A program made the position numbers and the translations under genes. 32,989 nt of DNA, from contig JACVTC010000350.1 in the NCBI GenBank assembly GCA_016946835.1, positions 7,501 to 40,489 of the forward strand, in the 5' to 3' direction. The notes under the pieces were generated by a model. That model was not told the origin of the DNA, searched no databases, and was given only the letters and a program-made list of their open reading frames with translations. The stretch comes from Neocallimastix lanati (nom. inval.). Taxonomy: Eukaryota; Neocallimastigomycota; Neocallimastigomycetes; Neocallimastigales; Neocallimastigaceae. Below, piece by piece: positions 1 to 17,800 of the stretch; within the stretch, counting starts at the first letter, position 1, and each line of letters starts with the position of its first letter.

Positions 1-2800
1 TTATGATAAATGAGATAAATAAATATCTTAATGGTTATTCTTTATCAAAACTTGAAATACAATTTTCCGACTTTGCCATATATTTAAATGAAATAAAAAA
101 TAAAGATAGTTATAAAAGAGAAATTGAATATTATAAGGAGATATTCAATTATGATTATGAATTATTAAATATTCCAAAAAGAAATTATAAAGAAAAGGGT
201 ATATTAAAGCTTAATAAAAGTAAACAAAGTGTTAAAATTTCAAATGCAAATAATTATATTAATCAAAAAGAAGATATAAATTGTGGTCATTATATTGAAA
301 GTATTAATAATTTATTAAGTAAAAAAATAAATGATTTTATTAGAAATAAAGCATTAAGTAAAACAGCGTTCTTTATTACTATTTATGGCTATGTAATGTC
401 TAAATATAGTTCCCAAGATATTATTTATACATCTTTGATTAATGCCAATAGAAATAGTCATTACACTGAAAATATGATTGGTATGTTTATTAGTACTCAA
501 CCATTATTATTGAAATATAATGAAAACATTTCAATGGAAGATATTATTTTTAGAAATATGAAAATGTTGTTGAAATTATATGAAAATAACGATATTTCAT
601 TTTCAGAATTAGTTAATGAATTAAAATTAAAAAAGGTTAACAATTCATTTGTATATCATCCTAAAGATATATTAAGTATGAATTCCTCTAAAAAAGAAAA
701 TCAAAAAATCTATTTAGAAATAAATAATGAAAATAATAATATAAATACTAAAATACCTGATAGTATTTCGAAATTTGATATTTCTTTTAATCTTATTGAA
801 GGTGAAGAAAATTATTCTATTGCAATAGAATATAATAATAATTTATATGAACTATTTACAATTAAAAATATTGTTAATAGTTATATTAAAGTTATTAGTG
901 AAATAGATAAATTCGAAAATAATATTAATGAAATTGAATATATTCCTGAGGAAGAAAAACAAAAAATATTATATGAATTTAATAATAATTGGTGTGATTA
1001 TGAATGTAACAAATTGTATCATGTTGAGTTTAGTAAGATTGCAAAACATAATGAAAATAAATGTGCTTTAATTTGTAATGATCTTCATTTCACATACAAA
1101 CAATTGGATGATATGTCAAATTCTCTTGCTCATTACTTACGAAAACAGGGTATTGGAAGAAATGATATTATTCCAATTATTAGTGAAAGATCTTATTATT
1201 TTGTTGTTGGTATTTTAGGTATAATGAAAAGTGGAGCAGCTTATCTTCCAATTGATCCCGAATTTCCAAAAGATAGAATCCAATATATGATAAAAGAAGC
1301 CAAAAGCCATTTAGTTTTACACTATATTACTAATCAAGAAAATAAAGAAAAACTATCATTTAATGATATTGAAATTTATTCATTACAAGGTCATGATTAT
1401 GGAAAAGAAACTCATGAAATTTCTAATATAAATACAAGTAATGATTTATGTTATGTATTATTTACATCTGGAACAACAGGAAAACCAAAGGGTACCTTGA
1501 TTACTCATAATAATTTAATTAATTATTGTATGTTTAGTCAAACATATAATGGAAAAGGAGATATATATAATAATGAATTAAATAACATTTTAGCTATATG
1601 TAAATTTACTCATGATATATCTATTGGTGAAATTAATTACCCATTATTAAGAGCAAGTAAAATAATTCTTTGTAATGATGAAGAATTTAATAACCCAGAA
1701 TTATTAAGTAAAATAATTATTAAATATGATATTGATTATATTTTCACTGTCCCATCAAGAATAGAAAGTTATATGCACAATGAAGAATTTAAAAATTCTA
1801 TCATTAATGTCAAATGGTTCTTATTAGGAGGTGAAAAAATAGATTATAACATTATCTTATTAATACAAAGACACACTTATGGTAAAGTTCTTAGTGTATA
1901 TGGACCATCCGAAACATCTGTCGTTTCAAATATTAAAATACTTAATGATTTCAGAAATCTTGAAAATGATGCTAAACCAATCATTACTGTTGGAAAGCCA
2001 TTATGTAATTTCAAAATATATATTTTGGATAAATATTTAAAGCCTGTTCCTATTGGAATTGAAGGTGAAATATTTATTGGAGGATATGGTGTTGGTCAGG
2101 GATATCTTAATCAAGTTCAATTAACTAAAGAAAAATTCGTTGATTGTCCATATTATTTAGAAAACAATATTTTAAATAAAATGTACAGAACAGGGGATAT
2201 TGGAAAATGGACTAAAGAGGGGGAAATAATATGTATTGGAAGAACTGATTTCCAAGTAAAAATACATGGTATTAGAATTGAATTAGAAGAGATCGAAAAT
2301 TCAGTAAATGAAATAGAAGGAATCGAAAGATCAGTTGTAATTGATAAAGTTTCTAATATTAATAATGATAAATATTTAATATGTTATTACACAACTAAAA
2401 ATGAAATTGATATTAATGGTAGAAAAATACGAACATTTTTAAGAAATAAATTACCATTATATATGATTCCTAGTTTCTTTATACAAATTAAAGAATTCCC
2501 TATTACTCAAAATGGTAAATTAGATAGAAATGCTTTACCAGAACCAAATATAAACGAAATAATAAATGATAAATATATTTCACCAGAAACAGAAATTGAA
2601 AAATTTATTTGTCGTATATATAATGAAATATTTAATATATCTCATAATAAAATTGGTAGAAATAGCGACTTTTATGAAATTGGAGGAGATAGTTTTGTGG
2701 CATTTAAAGTTATTTCGATAATAAAGAAAAAATTGAATATTAAATTAAATATTAAAGATATTTTATCAAAACCAATTGTTTACGAATTAAGTGAATATAT
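1..2800 (+). other. NRPS module 1: C1 (partial) - A1 - T1
   Basis: C1 lacks its N-terminal lobe and HHxxxDG motif only because the window starts inside it; the C-lobe with the NxxGxF-like MIGMFIST motif is present. A1 (about 1017-2560) has the P-loop TSGTTGKPKG near residue 488, YGPSE, YRTGDIGKW, and NGKLDR with the invariant Lys. A4 reads FTHDISIGE with the pocket Asp at residue 538. My hand-aligned ten-residue pocket code is D-I-G-T-L-G-V-V-V-K; I cannot assign a substrate. T1 carries IGGDSF with Ser897. The whole module is repeated at DNA level as module 4. Confidence 0.9.
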
Positions 2801-14800: not shown

Positions 14801-17800
14801 ATGTAGAATATATAACAGTTATGGTCCAACCGAGTGTAGCGTAACATGTACTTATAAAGAAATCACTGAAGATACAAAAAAAATAACAATTGGAAAGCCA
14901 TTATGTAATTGTAAGGTATATATTTTAGACAAAAATATGAAACCTGTACCAGTGAATGTCGAAGGAGAAATTGTTATTGGTGGATATGGTGTAGGAAAAG
15001 GTTATCTTAATCGTAGTGAGCTCACCAAGGAAAAGTTTATTCCTTGTCCGTTTGAAAAAAGGAATGAAAATTGTCAGGTTATGTACAAAACTGGTGATAT
15101 TGGTAAATGGACATTTAATAATGAAATTGAATGTTTAGGAAGATCTGATTTCCAAATAAAGATTAATGGTCAAAGAGTTGAATTAGAAGAAATTGAAAAT
15201 ACAATTAAAGAAATCAATGAAATTAAAAATGTAGCAGTTATTGATAAAGAAAAGGAATCCGGAGAAAAATATTTAATATGCTATTATACCAGTGAATCTA
15301 CGGAAAATAAACTTCAAAGTAAAGAAATAAGAAATTATTTAAAAGATAAATTACCTAGATACATGATACCGAATTACTTTATATTGATCGAAAAATTACC
15401 ATTAACAAGAAATGGAAAGCTAGATAAAAAATTACTACCAAATCCAACGAAAAATGATATGGTGAAAGAGCAATACATTTCACCAAAAACAAAAATGGAA
15501 AAAATCATCAGTTATATTTACAGTAAAATATTTAAATTAAACGAAATGGAAATTGGAAGAATGAGTGACTTTTTAGAATTAGGTGGTGATAGTTTAGATG
15601 CCATTAAAGTGTCTATGATGATTGAAAAAGAATTAAAAATAAAAATTTATATTAAAGATATTTTATCTAATCCAGTAGTATGTGATTTAAGTAAATTAAT
15701 AGAAGACAAATTAATTATTCATAAGGACGATTATCAATCTGAAGTTATAAAAATTAGCAATAGCAAAGAATTCCCAGTAACATCCCAACAACTTGGTGTT
15801 TATTTGGACTCTATCAAAAATCCAAAAAATATTATGTACAATTTACCAAAAATATTCAAATTAAAGAAAAATATTAATATTGATATAATTAAAAATGGAT
15901 TAACCAAAATATTTAATAATAATGAAATCTTAAAAAGTAAATACTTCTCAAAAGAAGTAAACAATAACACTAAAATTTATGGATTAATTGATGATACTAG
16001 TATTTTAAAGTTTGAAACATATAGCTATGAAAATGTTAATACCTTTATTAGACCATTTAATTTGAAAAAGTCTCCTTTAATTAGAGTAGGTTTTATTAAT
16101 GATGAAATTTTACTTTTAGATATTCATCATATCATTGCTGATGGAACCAGTATTTCCATTATTATGGAAGAGCTTAATAAATATTATTATGATAACGAAA
16201 TTTCAAAAACTAAAATACAATTTAGTGATTATGCTCTTTATTTGAATGAAAAGAAAAACAGTGATTATTATTCAAAACAATATGAATTCTATAATAAAAT
16301 GTTTGATTGTGATTACAATATTGTAAATCTTTCCAGCATTACAGATAATTTAAACAAGGAAAAAAGTAAAAAACCAGGATATTGCACTAGAATTATTGAT
16401 AAAACAACTAGTAAATTAATTGATCAATATATCAAAAATAAAGAAGTTAGTAAAACTGCGTTTTTCTTAACCATTTATGGTTATATTTTGTATAAATATA
16501 CTCATCAAGATATTATTTATACTTCAATTATTGGAGCCAATAGAAATAAATACTTTACTGAAAAAATGATAGGTATGTTTGTCAGTACGCAACCAATTCT
16601 TTTAAAATACAATAATAATCACGTTAATTTCCACAGTCTAATTCAACAAAATATGGATTTAATTTTAAAATTATATGATTATCAAGATATTTCATTTTCT
16701 GAATTATCATCAACTATGAAATTGAAGAAGGTAAATAATACCTTTGTTTTCCAACCAAAAGAAATCGTTTACAACAAATTCAAAGACTCCAATTCAATAT
16801 TTTGTGAAAATGAAAATATTTATTCTTTATATGATAATCAAAATGAATTCAGTAATTCAATGAATACAAAATTTGACATTACATTTAATATATTAGAAAG
16901 AAATGATGATTATTCAATTACCATTGATTATAATTCAAATTTATATGATGAAAAACTCATTATCAGTATTGTTAATAGTTATATTAAAGTTATTAGTGAA
17001 ATAGATAAATTCGAAAATAATATTAATGAAATTGAATATATTCCTGAGGAAGAAAAACAAAAAATATTATATGAATTTAATAATAATTGGTGTGATTATG
17101 AATGTAACAAATTGTATCATATTGAGTTTAGTAAGATTGCAAAACATAATGAAAATAAATGTGCTTTAATTTGTAATGATCTTCATTTCACATACAAACA
17201 ATTGGATGATATGTCAAATTCTCTTGCTCATTACTTACGAAAGCAAGGTATTGGAAGAAATGATATTATTCCAATTATTAGTGAAAGATCTTATTATTTT
17301 GTTGTTGGTATTTTAGGTATAATGAAAAGTGGAGCAGCTTATCTTCCAATTGATCCTGAATTTCCAAAAGATAGAATCCAATATATGATAAAAGAAGCCA
17401 AAAGCCATTTAGTTTTACACTATATTACTAATCAAGAAAATAAAGAAAAACTATCATTTAATGATATTGAAATTTATTCATTACAAGGTCATGATTATGG
17501 AAAAGAAACTCATGAAATTTCTAATATAAATACAAGTAATGATTTATGTTATGTATTATTTACATCTGGAACAACAGGAAAACCAAAGGGTACCTTGATT
17601 ACTCATAATAATTTAATTAATTATTGTATGTTTAGTCAAACATATAATGGAAAAGATATATTTACCGATAATTTCACTGGAGCATTAGCATCAGCTAAAT
17701 TTACTTTTGATATGTCTATATGTGAAATATTATACCCATTGGCGAGAAATAAATGTATTATTTTAGCTAATGATGAAGAATTTAATAATCCATTATCATT

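What the first reader, a model, noticed from the sequence alone, without database searches (positions are those of the whole stretch)
870..17655. Natural adenylation subdomain exchange: identical A-core fused to different specificity pockets
Four of six modules (1, 2, 4, 6) share a ~660-690-bp block that is nearly identical at DNA level and ends at 1557, 4744, 11244 and 17655. In modules 1, 2 and 6 this is 19, 23 and 18 residues before the A4 Asp that opens the substrate pocket. Immediately after, the A domains diverge strongly and their pocket residues differ (D-I-G.., D-M-T.., D-M-C..). Recombination at A-domain subdomain boundaries is known in bacteria; here the block edges are visible within a single eukaryotic gene. 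Whether the pocket was swapped in or the core was homogenised by gene conversion is open.
Basis: partly seen in the sequence, partly recalled or inferred. Interest (0 to 1): 0.85.

Follow-up and report, generated by a model that had tools for sequence, protein, structure and literature searches.

The report
Patchwork peptide-synthetase modules in a fungus
In a giant, probably fungal gene that builds small peptides on repeated modules, stretches of DNA have recently been copied between modules while the parts that choose the building block mostly stayed different, which shows how such assembly lines can be rewired or kept alike.

Summary
Observation real, with one correction. In modules 2, 4 and 6 a 663-688-nt block (end of C domain, C-A linker, A domain through motif A3) is 98-99% identical and ends between A3 and A4. 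dS is 0.04-0.07 inside and mostly 1.0-1.3 outside. Module 1 is not a fourth case: window 1-3423 equals 9688-13110 exactly, and two other contigs of the locus carry a different module there: an assembly switch or a very recent unequal crossover.

The block is an island, with dS about 1 on both sides. That fits intragenic gene conversion of the front of the A domain, not pockets swapped into duplicated modules.

Wider finding: in parts of five NRPS genes of this genome, sharp edges recur at A3 in all five. In the C83 gene near-identical chassis carry three different A3-A6 pockets, the subdomain-exchange pattern. Yet pocket-only identity occurs in 0 of 155 same-gene pairs, and six pocket searches found no clear donor. 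I read this as homogenisation that mostly spares pockets, a eukaryotic variant of known bacterial NRPS recombination.

The parts
3..20903 (+). NRPS open frame, six C-A-T modules and a last condensation-domain stretch; begins inside a C domain, so the gene continues left of the window
1..3423 (+). Module 1: exact copy of 9688-13110; C169 and C376 differ up to 2900
4067..4744 (+). Shared block in module 2 (end of C, C-A linker, A1-A3; motif labels recalled)
   Evidence: with offset 12773
10541..11243 (+). Shared block in module 4
   Evidence: with offset 12773
16967..17654 (+). Shared block in module 6
   Evidence: with offset 12773
7250..7573 (+). Module 3 shares only the first ~320 nt of the block
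   Evidence: with offset 12773
2808..3874 (+). C-domain tract shared by modules 2, 3 and 5 (copy of module 2)
   Evidence: 3-6 mismatches in 1067
5991..7057 (+). C-domain tract, copy of module 3
12495..13561 (+). C-domain tract, copy of module 5
4864..5978 (+). Module 2 stretch (after A4 to T domain) shared with module a4 of contig C169, whose A-front differs; C169 shows a frame break there
   Evidence: start edge, end, frame break
4775..5255 (+). Pocket region of module 2 used as query
11249..11760 (+). Pocket region of module 4 used as query
17660..18150 (+). Pocket region of module 6 used as query

Best explanation
The modules of this NRPS gene, acting as tandem homologous repeats, exchange DNA by ectopic gene conversion and unequal crossing-over. 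The 690-nt blocks are conversion tracts that carried the end of the C domain, the C-A linker and the front of the A domain (A1-A3) between modules 2, 4 and 6. The tracts stop in or just after the conserved A3 stretch, where the pocket subdomain begins and the modules are too different to pair, or where a changed pocket would be selected against. Modules 2, 4 and 6 so kept their own pockets. Shown: the tracts, their sharp edges, the dS contrast, diverged flanks on both sides, and similar edges in other NRPS genes of the genome. Inferred: gene conversion as the event, and selection or lack of homology as the reason that pockets are spared. Donor and direction are not determined.
For: Block with diverged sequence on both sides (left 52-60%, right 57-64% identity over 200 columns). 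dS 0.04-0.07 inside; outside 1.01-1.27 for modules 2/4 and 2/6 and 0.63-1.21 for 4/6. A pocket swapped into duplicated modules would leave C, A-end and T alike; they are not. Further tracts with other limits in the gene (C only; C plus part of A; C plus A to +31; late pocket to T) point to repeated events. Among 155 same-gene module pairs of five genes, pocket more than 5 points above both flanks: 0; pocket more than 10 points below both flanks: 77. Six pocket regions searched in the whole genome: over at least 350 nt the best matches outside the same module type are 70-74%, apart from module a4 of the same gene for the module-2 query.
Against: Pockets are intrinsically the most variable part, so some of the 77 pairs reflect rate. 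Pockets are not always spared: the module-2 pocket is 94% like that of a4 on C169, whose A-front differs (a4 is left out of the 155 pairs), C71 module 6 shares pocket to T with modules 1 and 2 but not the A-front, and 22 pairs are alike throughout. The C83 pattern fits pocket replacement as well, and its donor may be lost. The donor search scores only the best candidates and cannot read the whole genome. No population data, so conversion and crossover are not told apart. In a2/a3 only the right-hand edge lies in the A domain, which does not discriminate.
Confidence: 0.72

Rival explanations
1. Pocket-cassette exchange: modules arose by duplication and the A3-A6 pocket of each was later replaced by a donor pocket, as described for bacterial NRPS genes.
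For: C83 gene: modules 3/7, 4/6 and 5/8 share their flanks (1.1-5.7% different) but pocket identity is 52-68% in the pairs printed, with edges at +22 or +61 and at +576 or +626. C721 module 2 against 3: alike to +47 and again from +615.
Against: In the window both sides of the block are diverged, so replacing a pocket alone cannot give it. No clear pocket donor in six genome searches. No pocket-only identity in 155 pairs.
Confidence: 0.18
2. Assembly artefact: the identical blocks are collapsed or mis-joined repeats.
For: Module 1 is an exact copy of module 4 and disagrees with C169 and C376; C385 carries a stray module fragment; four contigs hold the same locus.
Against: Blocks of modules 2, 4 and 6 differ from each other and are the same on C280, C169 and C376, though these contigs may rest on the same reads. 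Similar tracts occur on contigs of 329 kb to 2.43 Mb.
Confidence: 0.07
3. Old duplication with strong purifying selection on the A-domain front and fast change of the pocket, no recombination.
For: A3 is a conserved motif and pockets vary.
Against: Synonymous sites are also nearly unchanged inside (dS 0.04-0.07) and near saturation outside; edges are sharp; six other module pairs of the gene have dS 1.06-1.25 in the same region.
Confidence: 0.02

Closest known systems
A-domain subdomain swaps in bacterial NRPS genes (Baunach et al. 2021, PMC8097286; passages read)
   Same: Recombination edges inside the A domain; mosaic modules.
   Different: There the exchanged part changes the amino acid and the native C-A linker is kept. 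Here the C-A linker and A1-A3 are the shared part and pockets stay different. Bacterial, between clusters; here within one gene of a probable fungus.
Flavodoxin-like (pocket) subdomain exchange (Kries 2015 as described in PMC10212144; PMC8616955; passages read)
   Same: Its left boundary between A3 and A4 coincides with our edges; C83 modules look like natural versions.
   Different: Those are engineered. The right edge in C83 lies near A6, while the engineered cut lies between A5 and A6. No pocket donor was found here.
Intragenomic recombination in the wollamide/desotamide NRPS (PMC9205934; passages read)
   Same: Partial A-domain exchange between NRPS genes of one genome.
   Different: There pocket and P-loop were replaced from another locus; here the front of A is shared among modules of one gene.
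Module duplication and recombination in fungal NRPS genes (PMC2823734; lpsA of Claviceps, PMC8704706; passages read)
   Same: Fungal NRPS modules duplicate and recombine; gene conversion is named as a likely mechanism.
   Different: In the passages seen, shown by domain trees or by polymorphism along domains, not by tract edges inside the A domain.

Membership tests
Multimodular NRPS | Repeated condensation, AMP-binding and carrier domains | tested here: met
   PF00668, PF00501 and PF00550 in 6 of 6 module pieces
Intragenic gene-conversion tract | Near-identical tract bounded on both sides by diverged homologous sequence, low dS inside | tested here: met
   modules 2, 4, 6
Intragenic gene-conversion tract | Non-reciprocal transfer (donor unchanged) | not testable with these tools
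   needs outgroup orthologues or populations
A-subdomain (pocket) exchange | Pocket differs while both flanks are alike | tested here: not met
   0 of 28 pairs of this gene; flanks of modules 2, 4, 6 diverged. Met in another gene, C83: 12 of 36 pairs
A-subdomain (pocket) exchange | Identifiable pocket donor | tested here: not met
   six pocket queries against the own genome; the only near match outside the module type is a4 of the same gene, which shares more than the pocket
A-subdomain (pocket) exchange | Edge between A3 and A4 | tested here: met
   edges +31 to +93 nt from the A3 Ser in this gene

The most novel reading that the evidence does not exclude
In this genome NRPS genes evolve by pocket-sparing concerted evolution: condensation, linker, A-front, A-end and carrier parts are repeatedly homogenised among modules of a gene, while the A3-A6 pocket subdomain mostly keeps old diversity and acts as the unit of identity. 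The C83 gene, with three pockets in near-identical chassis, would be a natural plug-in experiment in a eukaryote.
Probability: 0.5. Interest if true: 0.72.

Novelty: new variant of a known kind. Interest (0 to 1): 0.55.

Why it matters
NRPS engineers look for cut points that keep enzymes working. Tract edges fixed inside one genome suggest natural cut points (C end, C-A linker start, A3, A6), and near-identical chassis with different pockets would let pocket effects be measured alone. It also shows that A-domain trees of such genes mix histories, so substrate prediction should rest on the pocket region.

Tried and rejected
Bacterial relatives: one scan of genome contigs with module 2 matched 57 pattern stretches, none confirmed by tblastn; not repeated, so the origin of the gene is not settled. 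The PDB sequence search gave linear gramicidin synthase as best relative, background only. Self-BLAST of C169 and C71 missed most tracts, so codon alignments were used. Window coordinates printed, and the difference counts printed with an offset of 9590 (and the C376 count), are wrong and discarded; the counts used are those. The a4/a5 edge at +379 is an effect of the frame break in a4; at nucleotide level it is +184, and the 8 pairs with a4 were left out (163 pairs, 155). Edges at +400 to +503 in C721 come from the cut end of the fetched stretch and were dropped.

Edge clustering: after merging by hand, 6 of 22 edge clusters lie within -15 to +95 of A3, against 3.9% expected from simulated random breakpoints (binomial 1.6e-4; other four genes alone 4 of 16, 0.003). 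The interval was chosen after seeing the edges, merging was not by one fixed distance, clusters are not independent, and the simulation used 18 diverged pairs of one gene. I take this as a hint of recurrence, not proof of a hotspot: an edge is also expected wherever a spared pocket begins.

The species was not identified: size and GC fit Neocallimastix (table in PMC12341934), but none of the seven assemblies in that table has 199.0 Mb and 762 scaffolds.

Full report
Setting. The window is part of contig C280 of a 199-Mb, 762-contig genome; GC in the window is 13-34% per kb. One open frame, 3-20903, carries six modules, each with Condensation, AMP-binding and PP-binding matches, and a last condensation-domain stretch. 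Size and GC resemble Neocallimastix, an anaerobic gut fungus (values in PMC12341934, passages read); the name is an inference. PMC8106346 (passages read) reports 146 biosynthetic genes, NRPS genes among them, in four gut fungi and that 44% of the NRPS condensation domains are sister to or nested within bacterial ones; the words recombination, duplication and gene conversion occur 0 times in its main text.

The locus is held on four contigs. C169 (nine modules, a1-a9), C376 and C385 carry the same gene: window modules 2-6 are a5-a9. Between 2901 and 19299 the window differs at 0 sites from C169 and at 1 from C376. These may be haplotypes, duplicated contigs or very young duplicates; I cannot tell.

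Module 1. Window 1-3423 equals 9688-13110 without a mismatch. In C169 the module at this place is another one (a4), 55-73% identical to window module 1 per 150-nt bin up to about 2700; C376, which begins inside this module, agrees with C169 and not with the window. Differences stop at 2900; from there to 3423 the sequence is a C-domain tract that modules 2 and 5 share in any case. The first module of the window is therefore either a mis-join through the repeat or a recent unequal crossover, and should not be counted as a further core-pocket fusion. In C169 the a4 frame is broken by stops over about 120 nt; C376 reads open from its end through that part.

The block. In window coordinates (offset 12773, from the A3 positions) modules 2, 4 and 6 share 4067-4744, 10541-11243 and 16967-17654: 12 mismatches in 678 (2/4), 7 in 663 (2/6), 4 in 688 (4/6). 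Relative to the first base of the A3 Ser it runs from -628 or -613 to +64 (pairs with module 2) or to +89 or +93 (4/6, depending on the alignment). Flanks of 200 columns are 52-60% identical on the left and 57-64% on the right. dS in the block is 0.07, 0.06 and 0.04; in the C domain 1.03, 1.01 and 1.21; from +66 to +380 1.08, 1.09 and 0.63; from +380 to +600 1.23, 1.21 and 0.95; from +600 to +1300 1.27, 1.20 and 1.12 (pairs 2/4, 2/6, 4/6). Longest runs of agreeing variable sites are 65, 221 and 184, against at most 37 over 28 pairs in 1000 column permutations.

Other tracts of the same gene. a2/a3: T end, C and A to +31, 6 mismatches in 1913, then 43% identity. Modules 2/3: 1592 nt ending at -296, 11 mismatches. 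Modules 2/5 and 3/5: C domain, 1067 nt ending at -902, 6 and 3 mismatches. a4/module 2: from +184 through the T domain. Tracts of different limits and divergence mean several events. Because the block of modules 2, 4 and 6 is an island, a pocket swapped into duplicated modules does not explain it; transfer of the A-front does.

Other NRPS genes. The Condensation search of the genome (74 scored matches, a capped list) falls on at least nine long NRPS frames. I fetched parts of four besides this locus: C71 (20 kb), C83 (30 kb), C445 (40 kb) and C721 (20 kb). With C169 that gives 42 modules, some cut at the ends. Sharp edges (flank at most 70% identical) near A3 occur in 5 of 5 genes: C169 +31, +64, +93; C83 +22, +61; C445 +22 to +33; C721 +47; C71 -9 to +3. 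In C71 the A3 edge is a start: module 6 shares pocket to T with modules 1 and 2, with a different A-front. In C83, modules 3/7, 4/6 and 5/8 are near-identical before A3 and again from +576 or +626, and 48-59% identical in the 200 columns after the A3 edge. This is the full pattern of a subdomain exchange. The published pocket subdomain starts between A3 and A4 and ends between A5 and A6 (PMC10212144, passages read); our right edges lie near A6 (motif label recalled; in module 2 the Gly-rich stretch is at about +591).

Swap or homogenisation. Pairs were classed by identity of A-front, pocket and A-end. Of 155 same-gene pairs (8 pairs with a4 left out; 5 pairs with a missing segment skipped), 0 have a pocket more than 5 points above both flanks, 77 have it more than 10 points below both, 12 are high-low-high (all C83), 22 are high in all three, and 3 have the pocket more than 10 points above one flank (all C71). 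The omitted pair a4/module 2 would be a further case of the last kind: pocket 94% alike, A-front different. Of 657 between-gene pairs none has a segment at 90% or more.

Donor search. Six pockets (window modules 2, 4, 6; C83 modules 3, 4, 5) were searched in the whole genome. Apart from copies of the same module type on any contig, a fragment of the module-4 pocket on C385 and a4 for the module-2 query, the best matches over at least 350 nt are 70-74%; short conserved pieces reach 89% over 44 to 61 nt. C755, C93 and C747 were within reach of these searches but not of the tract map. A recent pocket transfer within the genome should have left such a copy unless the donor was lost or unreadable. 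I therefore favour homogenisation around spared pockets, more firmly for the window (0.72) than for C83.

Literature. Passages of PMC8097286, PMC9205934, PMC2823734, PMC8704706, PMC8616955 and PMC10212144 were read. Recombination inside A domains is established in bacteria; the fungal papers report module duplication and recombinational shuffling. Searches of the held library listed no paper whose title or printed abstract start describes recombination edges inside A domains of gut-fungal NRPS genes. The library lacks most subscription journals, listings were capped and most listed papers were not opened, so this is weak evidence of novelty.

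Noticed in passing
window, about 19470-19970: Long asparagine-rich, AT-rich repeat inside the last condensation-domain stretch; C376 lacks part of it and the C376 and C385 frames break there.
   Followed up: partly
window, about 21840-26000: Broken retrotransposon-like sequence downstream of the gene (reverse-transcriptase-like pieces, judged by eye), with many copies of about 83-88% identity across the genome.
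   Followed up: no
window 26745-28256: Tandem repeat array with 84-, 108- and 300-nt spacings.
   Followed up: no
C385, reverse strand, positions 14386-14943 of the joined stretch: A 559-nt fragment of module 4 (98.9%), with stops in the one frame read, sits downstream of the gene beside another open frame rich in IDLPNESNN repeats; relic or mis-join.
   Followed up: partly
C280:1-5000 (left of the window): This flank recurs at ~100% on C52 and C169 (whole), and in part again on C169 and on C310, so the gene sits beside a repeated segment.
   Followed up: no
C83:965-2344 (+) and C83:12781-14160 (-): Condensation domains with the same score on opposite strands of one contig: head-to-head NRPS copies or a palindromic assembly.
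   Followed up: no
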